A stretch of DNA of 64,000 bases from Thiotrichaceae bacterium (GCA_002401765.2 NVTY02000079.1:62001-126000), one strand, 5' to 3'. Shown: positions 39,081 through 60,381, counted from the stretch's first letter. The notes: generated by a model from the letters alone, not told the origin. Program-made: numbers and translations.

Positions 39081-39530
39081 TTAGGCTTTCACAATCGTGC
39101 GTGCTTGATTTTGGTTGATTTTTTCACCTGTACGGCCGTACTGGAGCTCTGTAGTGGGCTCTTTTCCAAGAAGGATGGCGGTAGCCTGTTCAATGAATTT
39201 TTTTGTCGAATGGATAATGATGCCATTAATCTGATTTTGTTGCTGGCAATCGAGTGCTAATACTTGTAGCTGCTGCCATTGGGGTTTAAGTGATGGTGTG
39301 AGTAACTCGGAATCGGAAGGGGGTATTTTCGCCATTCTATTCTGGCTTGCTTGCTCTAAGGATTTTATTTGCTGCTCCTTCTGCGTGGCTAGGCTGGAAA
39401 TTTCTACGGCACTGGTTTGCGGATTAGAAAGCGCCTCATGCTCTTTTTTGAGTAAAGAAAGAAGTTCGCTAGCACCTTTCAGCTCTTCATTGATTAGATC
39501 TGCTTTGATGGATTGATTATTGCGCTTCAT
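39081..39530 (-). CDS. flgN: FlgN-like chaperone for FlgK and FlgL
   Basis: A 149-residue helical protein with the FlgN pattern of LLSLLKKEHEALSNP near 22-36 and a polar C-terminus (NQNQARTIVKA). FlgN binds the hook-filament junction proteins FlgK and FlgL before export. It follows flgM by 26 bases. Sequence conservation in this family is low, so order (flgA-flgM-flgN) supports the call. Its clients here are enlarged, see flgK and flgL. Confidence 0.9.
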   Translation of the reverse strand: MKRNNQSIKADLINEELKGASELLSLLKKEHEALSNPQTSAVEISSLATQKEQQIKSLEQASQNRMAKIPPSDSELLTPSLKPQWQQLQVLALDCQQQNQINGIIIHSTKKFIEQATAILLGKEPTTELQYGRTGEKINQNQARTIVKA

Positions 39531-46106: not shown

Positions 46107-46850
46107 ATGGATCGCATGCTCTATCTTGCCATGTCTAGCGCCAGCCACACGATGAAGGCGCAGGCCGTGAATGCGAATAACTTAGCCAACGTGAGCACCA
46201 CTGGTTTTCGTGCAGATCTGGCGGCCTTCCAAAGCGTGCCTTTAGAAGGTGCGGGGCACAATAGCCGTGTTTATAGTGTTGCGAAAGAGAATGGCACCAA
46301 TCTTTCGCAGGGCGCGATGTTGACGACCGGGCGCGAACTGGATGTCGCCATTAACGGTGATGGCTGGTTTGCGATACAGACGAAAGAGGGTGGCGAAGGC
46401 TTTACCCGTGCTGGCAATTTTCGTATCACCGCTAGTGGCCAGCTTGAGACCGATCGTGGCCAACCGGTATTAGGCAATAGTGGCTTGCCTATTATTATCC
46501 CACCGTCGGAAAAGATTGAGATTGCGCCAGACGGCACGGTCTCTGCGCGCCCGGTTGGGCAGGCAGCATCGACGCTGGTGGTCATTGACCGGGTTAAGAT
46601 GGTGAACCCAGATCCGGCCACGATGCAGAAGGGCCATGACGGTGTGATGCGGCTTAATGATGGTTCTATTAGCGTCGCGGATGCCGCGGTGACATTGTCA
46701 TCTGGCATGTTGGAAAGCAGTAATGTGAATGCGATTGATGCGATGGTGGGGATGATTGCCTTATCACGTCAATTTGAGATGAATGTGAAAATGATGAAGT
46801 CGGCGGAAGATAATGATAAGGCGTCGGCACAGTTATTGCGTATGAGTTAG
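46107..46850 (+). CDS. flgF: Flagellar rod protein FlgF
   Basis: A 247-residue proximal rod protein with [35 protein letters not shown], the [15 protein letters not shown] core and the C-terminal [20 protein letters not shown] helix. AGGAGG precedes the ATG. flgG follows after 40 bases. Confidence 0.96.
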
Positions 46851-46890
46851 TCAGCGGCAACGAATCAAGACGATTAAAGAGGACGATGTT

Positions 46891-47679
46891 ATGACAAGCC
46901 AAGCACTTTGGATAGCGAAGACAGGATTGGATGCACAGCAGACGCGGATGTCGGTGATCGCGAATAATCTAGCCAATGTGAATACCACCGGTTTTAAGCG
47001 TGGCAGGGCCGTCTTTGAAGATTTGCTTTATCAGAATGTACGCCAGGTAGGCTCGCAGGCTTCACAGGACTCACAGCTGCCGACAGGGCTGATGTTGGGC
47101 ACCGGCGTGCGCACCGTTGCAACAGAGAAGCTCTTTACGCAAGGTAACAGTGTCGAAACTAAAAGCCCCTTAGACCTTGGTATTCAAGGGCGTGGGTTTT
47201 TTCAGATTCAACTGCCGGATGGAACGCAAGCGTACACCCGCGATGGTTCTTTTCACTTAGATGCACAGGGGCAAATTGTGACCGCAAGCGGCAATGTATT
47301 GCAGCCAGCGATTACCATTCCAGAAAATTCATTGAGCATTAGTATTGGTGCGGACGGCAGCGTGAGTGTCACCCAGCAGGGTAACGCTGCCCCCACTAAT
47401 GTTGGCAACATCCAGCTGGCAGATTTTATTAACCCAACCGGATTGCAGCCGATGGGGCAGAACTTGTTGCTGGAGTCAGCTTCGAGCGGTTCACCGCAAA
47501 CAGGTACACCGGGTATTACCGGGATTGGTTCTTTATCTCAGGGCACGTTGGAGACATCGAATGTCAATGTGGTGGAAGAGCTGGTCGGTATGATTGAAGC
47601 GCAACGCGCGTATGAAATGAACTCGAAGGCGATTTCAGCATCTGATCGTATGTTGCAATTTATTAATAACAACCTTTGA
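46891..47679 (+). CDS. flgG: Flagellar distal rod protein FlgG
   Basis: A 262-residue protein of standard length with [34 protein letters not shown], the [19 protein letters not shown] core and [20 protein letters not shown] at the C-terminus. It forms the distal rod that passes through the P and L rings encoded just downstream. Confidence 0.97.
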
Positions 47680-47718
47680 TTTAACCCGATAGGTGCTTTG
47701 GAAAAGAAGGTGATGTAT

Positions 47719-48417
47719 ATGAGTACTAAAAATATTAAGTTGATGGCGGGTGTGGTAGGGCTACTGCTATTAGTCGGATGCACCACTGCACCAAAAGATA
47801 GAATTGCAACAGCAGAAGAGATCTTTGCGATGTCTGCACCGCAGCGGATTGATAATGGGGCAATCTTTCAGCCGGCTCAAGGAATGGTGCTGTTCGAGGA
47901 TATTAAAGCGCGCAACGTAGGTGACATGATTACCATCATATTGTCCGAGCAGACCAATGCCACCACCTCAGCCAGTACCAGCACATCAAAAGATAATGAT
48001 ATTGATATTATTAATCCCATTTTATTGGGATTACCGGGGGTGATCAATTCCACGCTATTGAGTAACCGTCAGATGACGCTTGAATCGTCATTAGACTCTA
48101 ATAAATCTTTTTCAGGTGACGGTGATAGTGCTCAAAGTAACCAGCTAACTGGCAGTGTGACCGCGTTGGTGATTGCGGTTTTACCCAATGGTTATCTTAG
48201 GATTGAAGGTGAAAAGAATATCAGTATCAATCAGGGCGATGAGTATGTGCGCATCAAAGGAATTATTCGTCCGGTTGATATTCGCTCAAATAATACTATT
48301 TCTTCAACACAGGTGGCGAATGCTGAGATCTCATATGGCGGTAATGGGATTATTGCAAGTGCCAATGACATGGGTTGGTTGGCCAAGATGTTTAATAGCA
48401 TTTGGTGGCCTTTCTAA
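47719..48417 (+). CDS. flgH: Flagellar L-ring lipoprotein FlgH
   Basis: A 232-residue outer-membrane lipoprotein with a lipobox LLVGC (Cys near 22) after a short Lys-containing signal. The FlgH core has GMVLFEDIKARNVGDMITI and LSEQTNATTSAS, and it ends in ANDMGWLAKMFNSIWWPF. I chose ATG 47719, with AAGG 8 bases upstream, over the alternatives TTG 47698, GTG 47710 and ATG 47713. Confidence 0.95.
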   Translation: MSTKNIKLMAGVVGLLLLVGCTTAPKDRIATAEEIFAMSAPQRIDNGAIFQPAQGMVLFEDIKARNVGDMITIILSEQTNATTSASTSTSKDNDIDIINPILLGLPGVINSTLLSNRQMTLESSLDSNKSFSGDGDSAQSNQLTGSVTALVIAVLPNGYLRIEGEKNISINQGDEYVRIKGIIRPVDIRSNNTISSTQVANAEISYGGNGIIASANDMGWLAKMFNSIWWPF

Positions 48418-48458
48418 GATCAGTGAACCATCTTTAAGCGATAGAAGGACTGGACGTA

Positions 48459-49571
48459 ATGAATAAAAAATGGCTATTAACCCCCTTTCTGTTGGCAACT
48501 ATTTTTATGGCGGGCGCGGCGCAGGCTGAACGAATCAAAGATATTGCGAATGTTGCGGGTGTGCGCGCCAATCAATTGGTTGGCTATGGCCTTGTAGTGG
48601 GTTTAGATGGCACGGGTGATCAAACTAGTCAGACCCCATTTACCATTCAAAGCATGCTGAGTATGTTGGCTCAGTTTGGCATCACTCTGCCACCGGGTAG
48701 CAATCCACAGTTAAAAAATGTTGCAGCAGTGTCACTACACACCAATCTGCCGGCATTTGCAAAACCGGGGCAATTGCTTGATGTGACTGTTTCATCATTG
48801 GGTAATTCTAAAAGCCTACGGGGTGGCAGCTTGTTAATGGCGCCATTGAAAGGTGCAGATGGACAAATTTATGCCATTGCACAAGGCAACCTGGTGGTGG
48901 GTGGTTTTGGTGCTGGTGGCAGTGACGGCTCCCGAATTACCGTTAATATTCCCAGTGTCGGTCGGATCCCCGGTGGTGCGACGGTCGAGCGTGCGGCACC
49001 GACATCCTTTGGTTCTGAGGACAGCATTGTATTGAATCTTCACGGGCCAGATTTTACCACTTCAAAACGTGTTGCCGAGGCGATCAATAGCGCCATTGGC
49101 ATGGGCACCGCATACCCTATTGATGCCTCTTCGATTAAAGTCAATGCACCTAGATCACATGCGCAGCGGGTGATATTTTTATCGATTGTTGAAAATATTA
49201 CGCTAGAACCCGGTGAAGCCTCGGCCAGAATTATTGTTAACTCAAGAACGGGCACGGTGGTGATTGGTCGTCATGTCCGAGTGACTTCTGCGGCAGTTGC
49301 GCATGGCAGCTTGACGGTCACGATTGTTGAACAGGTTGCGGTGAGCCAGCCCACCGGGCCGCTTTCAGGTGGTTCAACCGTGGTGGTGCCGGCATCGGAC
49401 ATAGCGATTAGCCAGGAGACTAATCGTATGTTTATGTTTAGCCCGGGTGTTTCTCTGAATGAGATTGTGCAGGCGGTGAATCAGGTGGGTGCCGCACCGG
49501 GGGATCTGATCGCAATTCTTGAGGCATTGAAAGAGGCCGGTGCACTGCGCGCTGAGCTAATTGTGATTTAA
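48459..49571 (+). CDS. flgI: Flagellar P-ring protein FlgI
   Basis: A 370-residue periplasmic protein with a signal peptide ending AGAAQAE, then [33 protein letters not shown] and the closing [20 protein letters not shown]. It builds the peptidoglycan-level bushing with help from FlgA. Normal length. Confidence 0.97.
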
Positions 49572-49593
49572 AAGGGACTGGAGTAATCATATT

Positions 49594-50523
49594 ATGACTT
49601 CAACCTCTTCTGTTTATACTGACTTTCATGGTCTGTCCCAGTTAAAGGCAGATGTGCGTAATGGTGCCACGGATGAGTCGATAGAGCAGGTTGCGCGTCA
49701 GTTTGAATCAATCTTTACTCAGATGATGTTAAAGAGTATGCGGGATGCCAATCAAATAGAAGGTGGTCTATTTGATAATGACCAGAGCAAGACGTACCGT
49801 GAAATGTTCGATAAGCAGCTTTCATTGACCCTGTCAGAAGGGCGTGGTATTGGCTTAAAAGAGATGTTGATCCGCCAGTTGGGTGGTGCGCCAGACGGGA
49901 CTCCGACGGCGGTTGATGATGAGATGGTGTTTAACCCTTTGCCAGAACGGATGGCTTCACAGAGTGTGGTTCATTCAGTGCATGGGGCGAACGCGGTTGA
50001 ATATCGAGCTGGCCGAATTGAGTCACCGCGTGATTTTGTTGAGCAGATGAGGCCGGCGGCTGAACGCGCAGCAGAAAAACTGGGGGTTTCAGCGGATGTA
50101 CTCATTTCTCAGTCGGCACTTGAGACCGGCTGGGGCAAGGCGATCATTCAAGACCCAAACGGCAACAATAGTCATAACATGTTTGGCATTAAAGCAGATA
50201 GCCGTTGGCAGGGCGAGCGGGTCGCGGTACCTACGGTTGAATATGAAAATGGCGTTGCTAGAAAAGAGCTGCATCTGTTTCGAGCATATGATTCCTATGA
50301 GGAAAGCTTTAATGATTATGCCAATTTTATTCAGTCAAATCCACGTTATGAAAACGCCCTGTCGGTGGTGGCTGTTCCGCAGCAATACCTAGCAAGTTTG
50401 CAGCAGGCAGGTTACGCAACGGATCCAAAATATGCTTCAAAAATCAGTAAGATAATGGAGTCTAATGTGATCCAGCAGAAGCCTGAACCGATTCAGGATT
50501 CAGGCTATCAGCCGCTAATATAG
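49594..50523 (+). CDS. flgJ: Rod-cap/peptidoglycan hydrolase FlgJ
   Basis: A 309-residue bifunctional FlgJ: N-terminal rod-cap domain (about 25-100, VARQFESIFTQMMLKSMRDA) and a C-terminal glucosaminidase domain (about 150-300, SQSALETGWGKAII, NNSHNMFGIKA, DYANFIQSNPRY). It opens the wall for the rod. The C-terminal enzyme is present, as in gammaproteobacteria. Confidence 0.97.
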   Translation: MTSTSSVYTDFHGLSQLKADVRNGATDESIEQVARQFESIFTQMMLKSMRDANQIEGGLFDNDQSKTYREMFDKQLSLTLSEGRGIGLKEMLIRQLGGAPDGTPTAVDDEMVFNPLPERMASQSVVHSVHGANAVEYRAGRIESPRDFVEQMRPAAERAAEKLGVSADVLISQSALETGWGKAIIQDPNGNNSHNMFGIKADSRWQGERVAVPTVEYENGVARKELHLFRAYDSYEESFNDYANFIQSNPRYENALSVVAVPQQYLASLQQAGYATDPKYASKISKIMESNVIQQKPEPIQDSGYQPLI

Positions 50524-50535
50524 GAAGGATTGACG

Positions 50536-50601
50536 ATGAACATTTTAGTATTAAAACGCAACATTCACCATGCGATGAAACGCGCATTTGGGGTGGTTTG
50601 A
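50536..50601 (+). CDS. 21-codon ORF coupled to flgK
   Basis: A short frame with a strong ribosome site (AGGAAGG, 8-base spacing) encodes MNILVLKRNIHHAMKRAFGV plus V and ends TGA, one base before the flgK ATG (TGAGATG). flgK itself has only a weak ribosome site, so this mini-ORF may bring ribosomes to flgK. The basic peptide has no recognised domain. Expression is unproven. Confidence 0.45.
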   Translation: MNILVLKRNIHHAMKRAFGVV

Positions 50602-50602
50602 G

Positions 50603-52906
50603 ATGGCTGGCGGGATACTGGCCTCTGGTGTTTCAGGCCTGTTAGCGGCCCAGCGTGCATTAGCCACTACTGCCCATAATATCAATAACGTTAACACCGA
50701 AGGGTATAGTCGCCAGCGTGTTGAGTTTGCCACGCGTACTCCCGATGCGACCGGTTATGGCTTTGTTGGCAATGGTGTGCAAATCAACTCTATTGAGCGC
50801 AGTTTTGATGCCTTTGTGACTTCTCAGTTACGTTCTAGCACCTCTTCTAGCGAGCAAGCCAGTGAATTTAATAAATTGGCAAGCCGTGTTAATAACCTCT
50901 TGGTTGATGCCGATGCGGGCCTGATGCCCAGCCTGCAAGCCTTCTTTAACTCGGTACAGTTAGTGTCCGAATCCCCTGGTGACAATGTTGCTCGTCAAAC
51001 ATTGGTCAGCGATAGTGAAACATTGGTGGCGCGTTTTCAGAGCTTTAGTCAGGGGCTGGCGGATACCCGAGCAAGCCTTAATCAAACGATTCAGACAGAG
51101 GTGACCGCAATTAATGGCTTGACGACGGCAATCGGGAATGTGAATAGAGAAATTTCAAGTGCCATTTCAAACGGCAGTGGTAATACGCCCAATGATCTGC
51201 TTGATAAGCGTGATCAATTGGTATTAGAGCTTTCAAAGCATGTCTCGGTGACGACGGTTGAAGATGGCAGTGGTGCACTGAATGTCTTTATCGGCACCGG
51301 TCAGGCGGTGGTCGTTGGATTTGAATCACGTGATCTACTGACGATGAATAATGCGTATGACCCAGAGCAATTAGAAGTGGGTTTTGCAGCGGGTTCGGGT
51401 GCCGTTGAGTTGTCTGCTCAGTTAAGGGGAGGGTCACTAGGTGGCCTATTGAACTTTAGAACACAGCTGCTCGATTCCGCAGAGGATGGCCTTGGCCATA
51501 TTGCGATGGGACTGGCTGAAACCTTTAATCAACAGCATCAGTTGGGTATTGACCTTAATGGCGCGCTGGGCGGTGATTTTTTTAGTTCATTGGGCGCGAA
51601 TACACCACAAATTCTAGGGAACCAGAATAATACCAGTTCAGCCTCTCAAATCGATGTGAGTGTAACGGATGTTACCCAATTGACAGGCAGTAACTATCGC
51701 CTGGATCGAACAGGGACCAACTACACCTTAACGAATCTCGATAGCAATAATACTGTGTTGTTGACGTCATTCCCTGGTGGCCCGGAAACCGTTGATGGCA
51801 TCACGTTGGATTTAACCGTTGGTACCATTGCCGATGGTGATAGTTTTTTGATAAGGCCCGTGCGCAATGCGGCGCAAGATATGGGGCTAGCAATTACAGA
51901 CCCTAGAAGTATTGCGATGGCAGTACCGGTACGAGCCACGCACTCACTAGAAAATACGGGTAGTGGCGCGATAGATTCAGGCCGCGTCACCAACTCAGCG
52001 GCTTATATTGCAGATTCTTATGCTGTGATCATGGCAGATACCACTAGTGGTGTTGCTGATGGTGCCACCATTGGTTTAATTAATGATGATGTTGCAACGG
52101 CGAATACACTTCAATACCGTTTGATGATCAATGGCACGGCAGTCTACACGCAGAATGAAGGTGATCCACTATTAGCCGATCAGGATGCACTTGCAGCGCA
52201 GATTAATCTGAGTACTGCGACTACCGGGGTAAGGGCATATGTGGACAATGTGAGTGCTACGCTTTATATGGCACAGGATCCACGCAGTGCGCTGCCATTT
52301 ACCGTGACTGAAGCGTTGCTTGATAGCGGTGCGACGCCACTGGATGCGGCGGATTCTGTGACGGGTTATTTTGGTGCCGCCTTAACCGGTGCCGCACCCG
52401 CCAGTACGGTGACATATGGTGGTGTTGCTGATAGTTATATTGTGCTTGATAGTGCCGGTAATACCGAGGCCAGTGGTCTCTATACATCCGGCGATCCGAT
52501 TACGTTTAATGGCATTGAAGCATCGGTGAGTGGTGATGCTAATAGTGGTGACAGTTTCAGCATTGTCCATAACAGCAGTGGCGTGAGTGATAACCGTAAT
52601 GCACTGTTATTAGGGGCGCTGCAAACAGGCCTTACCCTTGATGGCGGCACGTCCAGCTATGAGGATATCTTTGGCTCATTGGTGGCGGATGTTGGCTCAC
52701 AAACGCACCAATCTGAGGTCAGTAGTAAGGCACACAACAGTGTTTTACAGGCCAACCTTGAAGAAAGAGCCTCTATCTCCGGGGTTAACCTGGATGAAGA
52801 GGCTGCGAACCTGATGCAGTACCAACAGGCCTATCAGGCAGCTGCACAGATTATTTCGGCAGCAGACTCGATGTTTCAGACATTGCTAAATAGCATTGGC
52901 AGGTAG
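50603..52906 (+). CDS. flgK: Hook-filament junction protein FlgK (HAP1), enlarged
   Basis: A 767-residue FlgK, longer than most. The N-terminal axial part is ILASGVSGLLAAQRALATTA and INNVNTEGYSRQRVEFA; the C-terminal part is SISGVNLDEEAANLMQYQQA and ends LLNSIGR. Residues about 500-655 form an extra domain (LQYRLMINGTAVYT, TGVRAYVDN, DSYIVLDSAGNTEASG, ITFNGIEASVSG) that has a clear counterpart in FlgL. Start ATG 50603, coupled to a 21-codon ORF. Confidence 0.95.
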   Translation: MAGGILASGVSGLLAAQRALATTAHNINNVNTEGYSRQRVEFATRTPDATGYGFVGNGVQINSIERSFDAFVTSQLRSSTSSSEQASEFNKLASRVNNLLVDADAGLMPSLQAFFNSVQLVSESPGDNVARQTLVSDSETLVARFQSFSQGLADTRASLNQTIQTEVTAINGLTTAIGNVNREISSAISNGSGNTPNDLLDKRDQLVLELSKHVSVTTVEDGSGALNVFIGTGQAVVVGFESRDLLTMNNAYDPEQLEVGFAAGSGAVELSAQLRGGSLGGLLNFRTQLLDSAEDGLGHIAMGLAETFNQQHQLGIDLNGALGGDFFSSLGANTPQILGNQNNTSSASQIDVSVTDVTQLTGSNYRLDRTGTNYTLTNLDSNNTVLLTSFPGGPETVDGITLDLTVGTIADGDSFLIRPVRNAAQDMGLAITDPRSIAMAVPVRATHSLENTGSGAIDSGRVTNSAAYIADSYAVIMADTTSGVADGATIGLINDDVATANTLQYRLMINGTAVYTQNEGDPLLADQDALAAQINLSTATTGVRAYVDNVSATLYMAQDPRSALPFTVTEALLDSGATPLDAADSVTGYFGAALTGAAPASTVTYGGVADSYIVLDSAGNTEASGLYTSGDPITFNGIEASVSGDANSGDSFSIVHNSSGVSDNRNALLLGALQTGLTLDGGTSSYEDIFGSLVADVGSQTHQSEVSSKAHNSVLQANLEERASISGVNLDEEAANLMQYQQAYQAAAQIISAADSMFQTLLNSIGR

Positions 52907-52908
52907 AT

Positions 52909-54477
52909 ATGCGTATATCAACAGGACAGATACAGTTAAGTGGGCTTAATCGAATGCTGGAGCAGCAAGCGCAGTTACTGAGAACACAGCAACAGCTATC
53001 GACGCAGAAACGCATCCTGAATCCTGCCGATGACCCCGCTGCATCTGCTAAAATAGTGGGCCTTGATCAGACATTAAAGGTGACCGAGCAGTTTCAGATT
53101 AACATTAACTTTTCCCGCTCGCGCCTTGAATTAGAAGAGGGGGTGGTTTCCGGTATCAATTCTACGCTTGATCGAGTGCGCGAAATTGCTGTTCAGGGTA
53201 ACAACTCAGCGCTGACTAATGCAGACCGCCGTGCACTGGCGGCTGAGGTGAGTCAAAATTTAAGTGAATTGCTTGGGCTTGCTAATTCTCGGGATGCTGG
53301 CGGTGAATACCTTTTTTCGGGTTACCAAGGGCATACACAACCTTTTACTGCAACGGCCTCTGGGCCCTATGTCTACAATGGTGATGACGGACAGCGTTCA
53401 ATCCAGATCGGTACCAATCGTCAGTTGGCGGTGACGGATTCAGGGACGTCAGCCTTTCGTGAAATACGTAATGGCAATGGAACATTTACCACACTTGATA
53501 ATCCATCGAATACCGGGTCGGGTATTATCGACCCTGGTAGCGTCTCAGATCCAACCTTGATCGATGGTGATACTTATACTGTCTCATTTTATACCCCGAC
53601 GACAGCAACAGGCAGTTTGACCTATAACGATGACCTCACCACGCCTGATAACCTTGATTATACATTAGCGATTAACGGTGCAACAGTTTATACAAGCGAT
53701 GAGGCGGATGCGACACCAATAAATACGCTGGATGACTTAGCGATTGAAATTAACAACGCATCTATTGCAACAGGGGTGAGGGCCCATGTCGACAATGGCG
53801 AACTCTACCTCACTAATACCGCTGCACCGGCAACCGCGATCACCATCACTGAAACCATGGCTGGGGCATCGGATGGTGGGCTGGATAGCATGGTGGGTTA
53901 TTTTGGCTCGAACCTGGATGGTTCCGGTACCTCAAGTGTCACGAGGACTGTTGAGCCTGCGGCAGAATTTTACCTGGTTGAAGATAGTCGCGGCAATGCA
54001 GAAGCATTTGGCCGCTATACGGATGGCGGCTCAATCGGGTTTAATGGCATACAGACAAACATTAAAGGTGGGCCTAACCTGGGCGATCAGTTTGTTATTA
54101 GCCCGAGTCTTAATCAAGATGTCTTCTCAACGGTGCGCAATCTGCAAGATGCATTAGAGGGTATCGGTAATAATGGTACTGCTGAAGGTTCGACCCAACT
54201 TAATAATGCAATCAACCGTTTTTTTGTGGATATTGATCGTGCAATGGAGAATTTTAATGGGATTAGAGCGCAGCTTGGTGCGCGAATGAATGCGCTTGAT
54301 TCTCAGCAGAGCTTGAATGAAGACTTTATCTTGCGCACTCGAGAGACAATTTCTGAGTTGGAAGACCTTGATATTACGGAAGCGATTACACGCTTTACGC
54401 AACAAGAAGTGGCACTTCAGGCGGCGCAGCAATCCTATACACGTATTCAAGGGTTATCGTTGTTTAATTTCCTTTGA
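52909..54477 (+). CDS. flgL: Hook-filament junction protein FlgL (HAP3), enlarged
   Basis: A 522-residue FlgL, well above the usual 300-430. Flagellin-like ends: N-terminal MRISTGQIQLSGLNRMLEQQ and ILNPADDPAASAK, C-terminal LGARMNALDSQQSLNEDF and TRFTQQEVALQAAQQSY. The inserted region at about 245-400 (LDYTLAINGATVYT, TGVRAHVDN, EFYLVEDSRGNAEAFG, IGFNGIQTNIKG) parallels the FlgK insert. The start is 2 bases after the flgK stop. Last gene of the operon. Confidence 0.94.
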   Translation: MRISTGQIQLSGLNRMLEQQAQLLRTQQQLSTQKRILNPADDPAASAKIVGLDQTLKVTEQFQININFSRSRLELEEGVVSGINSTLDRVREIAVQGNNSALTNADRRALAAEVSQNLSELLGLANSRDAGGEYLFSGYQGHTQPFTATASGPYVYNGDDGQRSIQIGTNRQLAVTDSGTSAFREIRNGNGTFTTLDNPSNTGSGIIDPGSVSDPTLIDGDTYTVSFYTPTTATGSLTYNDDLTTPDNLDYTLAINGATVYTSDEADATPINTLDDLAIEINNASIATGVRAHVDNGELYLTNTAAPATAITITETMAGASDGGLDSMVGYFGSNLDGSGTSSVTRTVEPAAEFYLVEDSRGNAEAFGRYTDGGSIGFNGIQTNIKGGPNLGDQFVISPSLNQDVFSTVRNLQDALEGIGNNGTAEGSTQLNNAINRFFVDIDRAMENFNGIRAQLGARMNALDSQQSLNEDFILRTRETISELEDLDITEAITRFTQQEVALQAAQQSYTRIQGLSLFNFL

Positions 54478-56655: not shown

Positions 56656-59600
56656 TTAAACGTGTGTTTGTGGCGCAGAACTGCGATAGCATCGGTATGA
56701 GCGCGAGCATGCAAATACCAACAGCAAAAGCAGTGTGCTATACAGGGCTCCACCGCCAATGTCTGGCAAAGCGAGGCGCTCTTTAGGCGCTGGTCGTACG
56801 CTCGCCACCGGTTTGACTGCTACCCCACCGGGATCGATAATAATGCCATTGGCGACACCATCGGCATCATTGTGGCCACCATCTTCGAGTAAAAGCTGTA
56901 CGCACAGATGACCAGGGGTCAGGCCTAAACGATAGGCACCGCTGTTGACTGGCGGGCAACTACCGTTGCTGCCGGCAGCTGAGGCGAGGGCGTTGTTGTC
57001 ATCAATAATAAAATTCTGCCAGCCAGTGGGCATCAGTTTTCGGTAGTATGGGTTAGTAGGAATTTTGTTTCGTAGTGGGATCACCACTTGAGCAGAGTCG
57101 CCAGCGGTAGCGAGGCCATGAATCTCAAAGTCGAACAGCCCGCCGACGTTAAAGTAGTCATCCTTTGGAAATCGGATGCTTGTGGCGTATGTTTCGATGG
57201 TAGACGCGCTTACCTGCAGGCCATTAGTGGCTGATTCAAAGGCGATGGCACCGAGGCGTAGTTGCAGACCAGGCTCTGTTTCAACCAGGTGCTGAGATTG
57301 ATTCGCCTGTTGTAACGCAATAACATGTCTTAGTTCAATTTTATCATGTTGATTGGCGATGCCATCACGGTCTTTATCTTCATGACTTTCATCTGCGGGG
57401 ACACTGACCACGACTTTGAAACGGTGGTTTTGGCTCGTGATGGGGCTAGGGTCAGTGACGTCCTCGCCCTCATCTACACCAATGATTTCGAGCACATCAA
57501 CCACAATGGTGTATGTGCCGACATTTAACTCGCTTGGGTCAAACGTAAAGGTGTTATTGGTAAAGTCAATCTTGCTGCCGACTAACGCGTTATCACTTTT
57601 GCTCCAGTCCAGTTTCATTTCTGCAGTGAGTTCTGGGACTATATTAGCAGTGACGACAACCTCATTGACAGCAGGGTCCTCTGTCGGTGGCGTGGTGACG
57701 GCAACCACGGTTGATGTGTGTGGCCCGCCATTTTGCTTCATCGTTAAGGAACTTTTCGGTACGATGTATTGCTCTGTGATCGTGATGGTATGAGTGCTTT
57801 TATTGCCCGCAATGACATCTAAACCGGTTAAGTCCCCCAATGTGAAAATAAGCGTTTCATCACCTTCGATGGCATCAGCATCGGTAATATTGAAAGAGAT
57901 GTCGCCGCTTACATGGTTCGAAGCAATGGTGATGTAATGATCGGCTAGGTCAGCGCTGATGTTGTGATCGGCTGAGTCAGCTGTGCCACTGAGTGTAAAT
58001 GGGATTTCAAGTAGAGTACTGACGGGGCCGTTGAGGTGTGCTGACACTAACACGCTCACACTTGAGCCTAATTCATTGCTGATCTGGTCAATTGAAAAAT
58101 TAACCATCGGGATCACAGTAACCGTTTGTGTGGTACTGGCCGTGGTGGAGTTGCCTACCGCATCGGTTGCCGTCCAACTGATGGTATGAGTGCCGGGCCA
58201 AAAGGGGCCGCTGTTATCGGGAATAGCAGTAATTACACCATCTTTTCCATCAATGGCAGTGGCGATGCCAAGGTCTACAGTTGTTAGTAGACCGGTTGAA
58301 TTGATGGTAGGAGGATCAACGGGCGCATCGAAATCTGCTGGTGGATAATCATCCTTTGTTGGATCCTTTGTGTCGAAACGAGACTCCTCGTAGTTGCTCG
58401 CGCCGTCGCCATCAAGATCGAGGTCGCGATCACTGTCGTCAAGTGGATTTAGGCCATGTTTGATTTCATAACGGTCGCTCATGCCATCACCATCACTATC
58501 ATGATCTAGATCCATTGTGACCGGGTCACTTGTGACACTTTCACTATAGCCTGCTCCGTCGGTGTAGCTGACGGTAACGGTAATGATTTGATTGACATCG
58601 GCTGTAGTGAGTAGATAGCTACTATCTGTGCCGACAACATCGGCAGTACCACTGTGGTGCCACTTGTACGAGAAGATGCCCAGGACATCACCATCAGTCA
58701 GGTCGCTGGTGACGGCACTTAATGTCTGCCCAATGTAGGGCAGACCACTAATGGTGACGTCACCTTGCACTGGCTTATTACCCGTGATGGTACCTGCATT
58801 AATATAGACTGATTCATCAGTACCACGTCTGTCGGTATAGCTGACCGTGACACGAATGGTCTGGCCGACATCGGCATTAACCAGTTGGTAGCTGCTATTA
58901 GTGCCGATGTTGGTAGTGTCATTGATGCCTATACGCTGCCATAGGTAACGAAATGGCCCCGGGCCATCATCATCATCTATTAATGACGCTGTATGGACTG
59001 TTAACAACTCCCCTTCTTGGGGGGTTCCAGAAATACTGATGCTGTCGGGTAGGACTTCGTTGCTGTTGCGGGGTAGATCGTTAATGTTATGAACTGTAAT
59101 GCTGAAAGGCGGAAGAGAGGTGCTTTTGCTTTCAGCATATTCATTACCTTCATCATCAGTATCCGTGACCGTGAAGCTTAAGTTGTTATAGGTGCCAACA
59201 TCATCGTTATTGGGACGAGATCCTTCACTGCTAAGTAAGCCGGTCTCAGGGTTAAAATTAAGCCAGGCAGGCAGGGATGTGCCGGGTGTGATGCTAAATA
59301 CCAGCTCTTCTTTGGTGCTATCGACATCCGTTGCAGTAAAAATGAAGTGGTAGTCAGCATCCTCATTGATGCTGGTGGGCGGGCTGTTGGTGAAGGTCGG
59401 TGCATCGTTGATCGCAATGACAGTGATGTCAAATGATGGGAGTGTGTCACTTTCCCCAACTGAATCGGTAACTGTAATTGAGATGCCGGTGTAGTCACCA
59501 GTATCGTCATTTGTCGGTGTTCCGCTAAGTATGCCACTGCTAGTATCGAAGTCTGCCCAGTTGGGTCGGTTAGTAATACTGAACTCTTCTGTATCGCTGG

Positions 59601-60381
59601 CATCGACTCTATCGACAACTGCTTTAAAGCGATAAGGGGTGTCTTCATCGACGGTTGTGGTCGGAATGCCACTAATGATCGGAGCATCATTGGTGTTGTT
59701 AACGGTAATGCTAAAGGCCGGTAGTGGTGTGCTAACCCCGTTATCATCTACAACGGTGATGATTATGTTGCTATGAATGCCGACGTGACTGTTCTCGGGA
59801 GTGCCGCTTAACTCGCCTGTCGTTGTATTGAGGGGTGCGGCCCATGCTGGTTTATTTTCAATAGTGAAGATGGGGTTGTCGTAATTGTTATCCTCATCAA
59901 CATCGGCGAGGTCTGGGACAAAGCTATAGGGGCTACCTTCATCAACAGCGGTGATAGGTGGGGCGTCGAAGGTTGGTCGGTCATCGACAGGTAGCACATC
60001 AATGGTGATTGTGTAGAATTCTGTGCTGTTGTTAGTACCATCATTGACTATAAATTGAAAACTGTCGTAGCCATTCCCAGATTGATTCAAGGCGGGTTTG
60101 AAAGTGAGATTGGCTAAGTTTGATGCATAAATTTCTTGATCGATCTCTACGTGGCTGAAAACAAAACTTAAAGTGCCCGTGGTTTCGAGCGCTGTGATCT
60201 TAATGCTGGTAAAGGGGTCATCATCAGCATCGAGGTATCCAAAATCAGCCTCTAAAAATGTATAAGTACTATCTTCACGGATGGTGATTGTGTTGTCACT
60301 CGCCGTCGGTACCGCGGCCAGTGCACCAGGTAGTGTCACTATGGATACTAATGATAATAAAATCAGCGAAAATATCCGCAT
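56656..60381 (-). CDS. Large secreted surface protein with Ig/cadherin-like repeats, choice-of-anchor U and GlyGly-CTERM-like end
   Basis: A 1241-residue exported protein. A signal peptide (cleavage near residue 23, GALAA) is followed by a cadherin-like unit, three putative-Ig (He_PIG) repeats at about 150-430 (each with NDAPxxxxxP and LSGTP) and two Ig-like repeats with ISGxPxxGxxL and VTVSYTD. A Ca-binding Asp-rich segment (SDGDGMSDRYE), a HYR-like unit (WTATDAVGNSTT) and a Calx-beta-like unit come next. Near 1090-1190 is a choice-of-anchor U domain (LMPTGWQNFIIDD, GLTPGHLCVQLLLEDGG). The end IGGGALYSTLLLLLVFACSR then Arg resembles GlyGly-CTERM, a rhombosortase sorting signal. Likely an adhesin or surface-anchored protein; no ligand can be read. 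Confidence 0.88.
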   Translation of the reverse strand: MRIFSLILLSLVSIVTLPGALAAVPTASDNTITIREDSTYTFLEADFGYLDADDDPFTSIKITALETTGTLSFVFSHVEIDQEIYASNLANLTFKPALNQSGNGYDSFQFIVNDGTNNSTEFYTITIDVLPVDDRPTFDAPPITAVDEGSPYSFVPDLADVDEDNNYDNPIFTIENKPAWAAPLNTTTGELSGTPENSHVGIHSNIIITVVDDNGVSTPLPAFSITVNNTNDAPIISGIPTTTVDEDTPYRFKAVVDRVDASDTEEFSITNRPNWADFDTSSGILSGTPTNDDTGDYTGISITVTDSVGESDTLPSFDITVIAINDAPTFTNSPPTSINEDADYHFIFTATDVDSTKEELVFSITPGTSLPAWLNFNPETGLLSSEGSRPNNDDVGTYNNLSFTVTDTDDEGNEYAESKSTSLPPFSITVHNINDLPRNSNEVLPDSISISGTPQEGELLTVHTASLIDDDDGPGPFRYLWQRIGINDTTNIGTNSSYQLVNADVGQTIRVTVSYTDRRGTDESVYINAGTITGNKPVQGDVTISGLPYIGQTLSAVTSDLTDGDVLGIFSYKWHHSGTADVVGTDSSYLLTTADVNQIITVTVSYTDGAGYSESVTSDPVTMDLDHDSDGDGMSDRYEIKHGLNPLDDSDRDLDLDGDGASNYEESRFDTKDPTKDDYPPADFDAPVDPPTINSTGLLTTVDLGIATAIDGKDGVITAIPDNSGPFWPGTHTISWTATDAVGNSTTASTTQTVTVIPMVNFSIDQISNELGSSVSVLVSAHLNGPVSTLLEIPFTLSGTADSADHNISADLADHYITIASNHVSGDISFNITDADAIEGDETLIFTLGDLTGLDVIAGNKSTHTITITEQYIVPKSSLTMKQNGGPHTSTVVAVTTPPTEDPAVNEVVVTANIVPELTAEMKLDWSKSDNALVGSKIDFTNNTFTFDPSELNVGTYTIVVDVLEIIGVDEGEDVTDPSPITSQNHRFKVVVSVPADESHEDKDRDGIANQHDKIELRHVIALQQANQSQHLVETEPGLQLRLGAIAFESATNGLQVSASTIETYATSIRFPKDDYFNVGGLFDFEIHGLATAGDSAQVVIPLRNKIPTNPYYRKLMPTGWQNFIIDDNNALASAAGSNGSCPPVNSGAYRLGLTPGHLCVQLLLEDGGHNDADGVANGIIIDPGGVAVKPVASVRPAPKERLALPDIGGGALYSTLLLLLVFACSRSYRCYRSSAPQTHV

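What the first reader, a model, noticed from the sequence alone, without database searches (positions are those of the whole stretch)
52100..54115. FlgK and FlgL share the same inserted domain
Seen: FlgK about 500-655 and FlgL about 245-400 align along their whole insert (LQYRLMINGTAVYT / LDYTLAINGATVYT; TGVRAYVDN / TGVRAHVDN; TGYFGAALTG / VGYFGSNLDG; ITFNGIEASVSG / IGFNGIQTNIKG). Known: these two proteins form adjacent rings at the hook-filament junction and vary only in outer domains. Inference: one domain was copied between neighbours, giving matching surface features such as adhesion, and both are probably FlgN clients.
Basis: partly seen in the sequence, partly recalled or inferred. Interest (0 to 1): 0.6.

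Follow-up and report, generated by a model that had tools for sequence, protein, structure and literature searches.

The report
FlgK and FlgL share outer domain
The two proteins that form the stacked rings joining a bacterial flagellum's hook to its filament carry the same two-part outer domain; its building blocks are already known, but it seems to have been copied between the two neighbouring genes, possibly more than once.

Summary
FlgK residues 456-659 and FlgL 201-397 align at 42% identity (blastp 2e-31); nowhere else in the genome matches. The "insert" has two parts. The outer part is the ordinary beta-sandwich of FlgL (D2), sitting at the D3 position of FlgK. Nested in it, at the same point in both, are about 120 residues of Flagellin_IN type, predicted like outer domains of flagellin and FliD. 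Across Gammaproteobacteria most carrier genomes have it in both proteins, some in only one. The sandwich of domain-bearing FlgKs scores closer to ordinary FlgL D2 than to ordinary FlgK D3 (27 of 28; control 1 of 19), favouring copying from FlgL to FlgK. Three FlgLs in other lineages carry the FlgK-type version, two of them closest to their own FlgK; tree tests are borderline. Shared adhesion has no support. FlgN is encoded nearby, but clienthood is the general rule for FlgK/FlgL and says nothing about this domain. Both parts were known (beta-grasp in FlgL/FlgK/FliD, 2007; FlgL D2 resembles FlgK D2, 2018). New variant of a known kind, moderate interest.

The parts
50603..52906 (+). flgK (ATG at 50603; an upstream TTG at 50588 gives the 772-aa frame P0001 used for numbering)
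   Evidence: TIGR02492 flgK_ends 345.8 bits over cut-off 170.75; PF22638 FlgK_D1 E = 8e-71
51617..51859 (+). FlgK D2 (aa 344-424), ordinary FlgK beta-sandwich next to the shared domain
   Evidence: PF21158 flgK_1st_1 E = 5.7e-14
51953..52048 (+). FlgK copy of the shared domain, first half of the beta-sandwich shell (aa 456-487)
   Evidence: blastp to FlgL; A1 model positions 1-32
52049..52426 (+). FlgK copy, nested Flagellin_IN-type module (aa ~488-613)
   Evidence: A1 positions ~33-151, absent from ordinary FlgK/FlgL; Flagellin_IN 23.4 bits over cut-off 22.7; PDB flagellin/FliD outer-domain matches Z 6-7
52427..52564 (+). FlgK copy, second half of the beta-sandwich shell (aa ~614-659)
   Evidence: A1 positions 152-198; shell matches FlgL D2 of X. 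campestris, Z 11.8, 2.2 A, 86 residues
52909..54477 (+). flgL (522 aa)
   Evidence: TIGR02550 flagell_flgL 311.3 bits over cut-off 127.2
53509..53604 (+). FlgL copy, first half of the D2 shell (aa 201-232)
   Evidence: ordinary ~400-aa FlgLs match A1 1-32 then 153-198 without the middle
53605..53958 (+). FlgL copy, nested Flagellin_IN-type module (aa ~233-350)
   Evidence: A1 positions ~33-151; Flagellin_IN 19.8 bits, just under cut-off; secondary-structure order as in FlgK
53959..54099 (+). FlgL copy, second half of the D2 shell (aa 351-397)
39081..39530 (-). flgN, export chaperone of FlgK/FlgL
   Evidence: PF05130 E = 1.4e-15

Best explanation
FlgK and FlgL carry one homologous, surface-facing domain. 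It is FlgL's D2 beta-sandwich with a Flagellin_IN (beta-grasp-like) module nested in one loop. SHOWN: homology of the two copies along ~200 residues, the same nesting point, the same order of predicted strands and helices, presence in both proteins through most of the window's family with a few single absences, and closer profile similarity of the FlgK copy's shell to FlgL D2 than to ordinary FlgK D3. INFERRED HISTORY: an FlgL already carrying the nested module donated the whole domain to the adjacent flgK, replacing FlgK's D3 in place, before the window's family diversified; elsewhere the domain sometimes moved back (FlgK to FlgL). INFERRED FUNCTION: structural rather than adhesive. In the assembled junction 11 FlgK and 11 FlgL stack along shared protofilaments with D2 domains outside, so like domains on the two rings can make quasi-homotypic contacts that stiffen the junction and set the room available to the FliD cap when filament growth starts.
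For: Homology: 42%, 2e-31; only two copies in the genome; 26 FlgK and FlgL domains of relatives align. Nesting: ordinary FlgLs match A1 1-32 then 153-198 contiguously. Fold: AF2 domain mostly pLDDT 70-92 with the same strand/helix order; shell = FlgL D2 (5ziz Z 11.8, 2.2 A, 86 residues, 30% id; 7c7z Z 10.0, 36% id) and FlgK D2 (4ut1 Z 9.8, 19% id); nested part = flagellin/FliD outer domains (9yh1 Z 7.1, 3k8w 6.7, 5h5w 6.1). Flagellin_IN in 21 of 26 members. Direction: insert-bearing FlgK shells score 76.7 bits on the ordinary-FlgL model and 62.5 on the ordinary-FlgK model (27 of 28 prefer FlgL); leave-one-out control: ordinary FlgK 43.6 against 61.1 (1 of 19 prefers FlgL, that one from the window's own family), ordinary FlgL 24 of 24 prefer FlgL. 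Age: own-genome FlgK-FlgL identity is mostly no higher than cross-genome in the window's family. Function: D2s of FlgK and FlgL are exposed on common protofilaments and a bulky FlgL D2 limits FliD D3 (PMC12221982); D2-D2 quasi-homotypic contact was proposed for B. pseudomallei (PMC6155364).
Against: A tree forcing insert-bearing and ordinary FlgK shells into one clade is not rejected (p-AU 0.41, only 77 columns), so copying from FlgL to FlgK rests on profile similarity. Ordinary FlgK D3s are very diverse (29% mean identity among themselves), so slow change in the domain-bearing FlgKs could imitate copying. The domain occurs in FlgK or FlgL alone in 9 of 29 carrier genomes, so a paired contact is not essential. 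No contact between the copies was modelled. Whole-model AF2 confidence is low (pLDDT 56 and 67), and the alignments held both families, so the two predictions are not independent.
Confidence: 0.6

Rival explanations
1. Ancestral retention: FlgK D3 and FlgL D2 descend from one ancient beta-sandwich; in some lineages both kept the old form and each gained the nested IN module separately, with no copying between the genes.
For: Ordinary FlgK D3 is itself a weak homologue of FlgL D2 at the same position (mostly 8-38 bits); FlgL D2 and FlgK D2 folds are known to resemble each other (PMC6155364); a joint clade of FlgK shells is not rejected.
Against: Needs the same module inserted at the same loop twice; nested cores of FlgK and FlgL lie together apart from the flagellin modules; 27 of 28 domain-bearing FlgK shells prefer the FlgL model while 18 of 19 ordinary FlgKs prefer the FlgK model.
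Confidence: 0.25
2. Repeated exchange: the domain is copied back and forth between flgK and flgL as a recurrent process (gene conversion between neighbours), not a single old event. This extends the best explanation rather than excluding it.
For: G402 FlgL core is 63% identical to its own FlgK and sister to it (UFBoot 95-99), although its backbone sister G291 has no FlgL copy; G289 FlgL is sister to its own FlgK (91-97 in the full-domain trees); G201 FlgL falls among FlgKs; G102 FlgK core falls with FlgLs. Reciprocal monophyly rejected on the core with LG+G4 (p-AU 0.011).
Against: With the mixture model p-AU is 0.062 on the core and 0.25 on the full domain; single rows are not rejected one by one; the full-domain mixture tree does not hold the G402 pair. 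The groups were named after seeing the tree. No such sign in the window's own family.
Confidence: 0.4
3. Adhesion or glycan-binding surface shared by the two rings.
For: Flagellin outer domains can serve adhesion in general (PMC10256154 abstract); the domain is expected to face outward.
Against: Structure matches are flagellar junction, filament and cap domains; adhesin-like rows (GbpA, SiiE, UafA) score only Z 2.4-3.4, among unrelated antibodies. Eleven copies per ring is a small surface beside the filament.
Confidence: 0.05

Closest known systems
FlgL D2 beta-sandwich (X. campestris 5ziz/5zj0, L. pneumophila 7c7z/5yti; Hong et al. 2018, PMC6155364)
   Same: Shell fold, position between the D1 helices of FlgL, 30-36% identity of the FlgK copy's shell to it; the authors already noted that it resembles FlgK D2
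   Different: These FlgL D2s lack the ~120-residue nested module; here the same domain also occupies the D3 place of FlgK
Flagellin_IN (PF07196) / beta-grasp domain of FliD, FlgL, FlgK (Burroughs et al. 2007, PMC1949818)
   Same: Nested module matches PF07196 in 21 of 26 members and has beta-beta-alpha-beta-beta-beta order
   Different: Here it is nested inside a beta-sandwich at one fixed site, and the whole composite is shared by the neighbours FlgK and FlgL
FlgK D2/D3 (Burkholderia 4ut1, Salmonella 2d4y/9go6)
   Same: Same beta-sandwich fold as FlgK D2 (Z 9.8 and 9.0); same place in FlgK as ordinary D3
   Different: Lower identity (16-19%) than to FlgL D2; no nested module
Flagellin and FliD outer domains (H. 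pylori FlaB, Sphingomonas flagellin, E. coli FliD, P. aeruginosa FliC)
   Same: Nested part aligns over ~90 residues, Z 5-7; flagellins of several other genomes carry it by sequence
   Different: The own flagellin (1112 aa) has IN repeats but only 18.5 bits to this core, so the close sharing is between FlgK and FlgL only

Membership tests
FlgK (TIGR02492) | curated equivalog score | tested here: met
   345.8 bits, cut-off 170.75
FlgL (TIGR02550) | curated equivalog score | tested here: met
   311.3 bits, cut-off 127.2
Flagellin_IN (PF07196), nested module | score over the gathering cut-off of 22.7 bits | tested here: inconclusive
   FlgK copy 18.5 bits in the protein scan but 23.4 in the genome search; FlgL 16.1 and 19.8; 21 of 26 domains of relatives match at E <= 0.01, best 2.3e-8
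Beta-grasp fold, nested module | beta-hairpin, helix, further strands; fold match to known members | tested here: inconclusive
   strand/helix order fits; Z 6-7 to FliD and flagellin outer domains, a level at which Z alone does not exclude chance
FlgL D2 beta-sandwich, shell | fold and sequence match to solved FlgL D2 | tested here: met
   5ziz Z 11.8, 7c7z Z 10.0 at 36% identity; profile matches to 7c7z and 5yti at E ~2e-9 and 5ziz at 5e-7
FlgK D3 (PF21159) | match to the Pfam FlgK D3 model | tested here: inconclusive
   no match in the window FlgK, but ordinary FlgKs match it only weakly or not at all, so the model is a poor test
FlgN client | binding of FlgK/FlgL by the FlgN chaperone | not testable with these tools
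   flgN present at 39081-39530; binding needs experiment
Adhesin | ligand binding | not testable with these tools
   no adhesin family among the Pfam matches

The most novel reading that the evidence does not exclude
The outer domains of the two hook-filament junction rings evolve by repeated copying between the adjacent flgK and flgL genes, so that the rings keep presenting matching faces to each other: a form of concerted evolution inside a flagellar operon.
Probability: 0.35. Interest if true: 0.55.

Novelty: new variant of a known kind. Interest (0 to 1): 0.36.

Why it matters
What the variable outer domains of FlgK and FlgL do is still open. A domain shared by both rings, with natural single-copy and no-copy relatives, gives a ready test of whether ring-to-ring outer contacts matter for junction stability or for the start of filament growth. 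It also shows how neighbouring flagellar genes may trade parts.

Tried and rejected
Low complexity or chance: rejected by E = 2e-31 spread along 206 columns. Recent gene conversion in the window's own genome: rejected; FlgK-FlgL identity there (41%) is below the cross-genome mean, rank 16 of 20. Strictly paired gain: not supported, and supported independent contrasts were too few to test it. First trees used wrong column slices (insert columns counted) and were redone. Viral-contig search with A1 failed for lack of conserved stretches. A paper search for gene conversion or domain shuffling between these genes returned nothing; the held library is partial. PHROGs gave one marginal hit only.

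Full report
WHAT IS THERE. flgK (50603-52906) and flgL (52909-54477) lie at the end of a flgB-to-flgL run of flagellar genes on the + strand. FlgK is 767-772 aa and FlgL 522 aa, longer than the usual ~640 and ~400 seen in relatives. BLASTP aligns FlgK 456-659 with FlgL 201-397 at 42% identity, E = 2e-31. In the whole genome only these two places match the FlgL stretch.

ANATOMY. A 198-position profile (A1) was built from 26 FlgK and FlgL domains of the window's genome and relatives. Ordinary ~400-aa FlgLs match positions 1-32 and then 153-198 without a gap in the protein, so they have the outer part and lack the middle. The domain is therefore a shell, which is the normal FlgL D2, with a nested part of about 120 residues at one site. 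Ordinary ~640-aa FlgKs have a weak homologue of the shell at the same place, about 447-537, their D3. The nested part belongs near Pfam Flagellin_IN: 21 of 26 members match at E <= 0.01, best 2.3e-8; in the own genome the FlgK copy passes the cut-off and the FlgL copy is just below it.

FOLD. AlphaFold2 models of FlgL and of FlgK 336-690 predict the domain mostly at pLDDT 70-92, with the same order of strands and helices. The rest of the FlgL model is poor, as expected from six sequences, and the alignments held both families, so the two models are not independent evidence of one fold; the 42% identity is. VIA-align on the FlgK model matches the shell to FlgL D2 of X. campestris (Z 11.8, 2.2 A, 86 residues, 30% identity) and L. 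pneumophila (Z 10.0, 36%), and to FlgK D2 of B. pseudomallei (Z 9.8, 19%). The nested part matches outer domains of H. pylori FlaB (Z 7.1), a cell-surface flagellin, 3k8w (6.7), and E. coli FliD (6.1).

DISTRIBUTION. In the window's own order 16 of 20 genomes have a match. In an even draw of 370 genomes of the window's class, the full domain was found in both proteins in 11 genomes, in FlgK alone in 4 and in FlgL alone in 3 (my count). In the 50 genomes assembled for trees, which are not a random sample, 20 have both, 5 only FlgK, 4 only FlgL and 21 neither. On a tree of the FlgK and FlgL backbones each label needs only 5-6 changes against about 17 for shuffled labels, so the pairing is mostly inherited. 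Supported independent contrasts were too few to test whether gains go together.

WHERE THE FLGK COPY CAME FROM. Profiles of ordinary FlgL D2 and ordinary FlgK D3 shells were used to score all shells. Domain-bearing FlgKs prefer the FlgL model in 27 of 28 cases (mean 76.7 against 62.5 bits). As a control, with the query's own genome left out, ordinary FlgLs prefer the FlgL model 24 of 24 times and ordinary FlgKs prefer the FlgK model 18 of 19 times; the exception, G011, is in the window's family and looks like a FlgK that lost the nested part. This favours transfer of the whole domain from FlgL into FlgK's D3 slot. It is not proved: a tree test on the 77 shell columns does not reject one FlgK clade (p-AU 0.41).

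DID IT HAPPEN MORE THAN ONCE? Trees of the nested core split into a FlgK group and a FlgL group (97/91 with the mixture model). Three FlgL copies (G402, G289, G201) fall in the FlgK group and one FlgK copy (G102) in the FlgL group. G402 FlgL is 63% identical in the core to its own FlgK, more than to any other row, and sister to it (95-99 ultrafast bootstrap), while its backbone sister G291 has the domain in FlgK only. Own-genome identity ranks first of 20 in G402 and G289 and is unremarkable in the window's family. Against this, full reciprocal monophyly is rejected on the core with LG+G4 (p-AU 0.011) but only borderline with the mixture model (0.062) and not on the full domain (0.25), and the groups were named after the tree was seen. 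I treat repeated exchange as suggestive.

HOW IT PROBABLY WORKS. In the solved junction 11 FlgK and 11 FlgL share protofilaments, their D2 domains are exposed, and in C. jejuni a bulky FlgL D2 may keep FliD D3 from moving down (PMC12221982). Hong et al. suggested that similar D2 domains on FlgL and FlgK make quasi-homotypic contacts that reinforce the junction (PMC6155364). In P. aeruginosa, outer-domain contacts in flagellin are needed for motility in viscous surroundings (PMC10256154). A common enlarged domain on both rings fits a structural role of this kind. This is inference; no contact was modelled. Natural single-copy relatives show that matching is not essential.

Adhesion: nothing supports it; matches are to flagellar junction, filament and cap domains, and adhesin-like rows are at noise level. 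FlgN: the gene is in the window at 39081-39530 and both proteins are FlgN clients in general (PMC6155364), so the guess is reasonable but independent of the shared domain.

WHAT IS KNOWN ALREADY. Beta-grasp domains in FliD, FlgL and FlgK were reported in 2007 (PMC1949818), and the resemblance of FlgL D2 to FlgK D2 in 2018 (PMC6155364). What I did not find described is the composite domain shared by the two neighbours, the FlgL-like nature of the FlgK copy, and the signs of exchange. The held library is partial, so absence there is weak evidence.

Noticed in passing
L133 (own genome contig C64, about 46400-49760; upstream of the window): The only flagellin found in the genome is a 1112-aa frame with two Flagellin_IN repeats around aa 794-924 that are only distantly like the FlgK/FlgL module.
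   Followed up: partly
L107 (G309), L108 (G120); L098 (G340), L100 (G292): Some FlgLs (483-533 aa) carry two copies of the D2 beta-sandwich in tandem, and some FlgKs (723-737 aa) show extra matches to it.
   Followed up: no
L080 (G221 FlgK, 908 aa); L082, L087, L118 (FlgL ~635 aa): Junction proteins with further large unassigned outer regions beside or instead of this domain.
   Followed up: no
L090, L091, L112, L113 (flagellin genes of G222, G116, G170, G328): Flagellins carrying the nested module by sequence (42-69 bits to A1) without the FlgL-type shell; in G222 and G116 the gene lies next to flgL.
   Followed up: partly
56656-60381 (-): Large predicted protein of Ig-like (He_PIG) and TSP3 repeats with a signal-like start and a hydrophobic C-terminal tail, beyond a recJ-like gene.
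   Followed up: no
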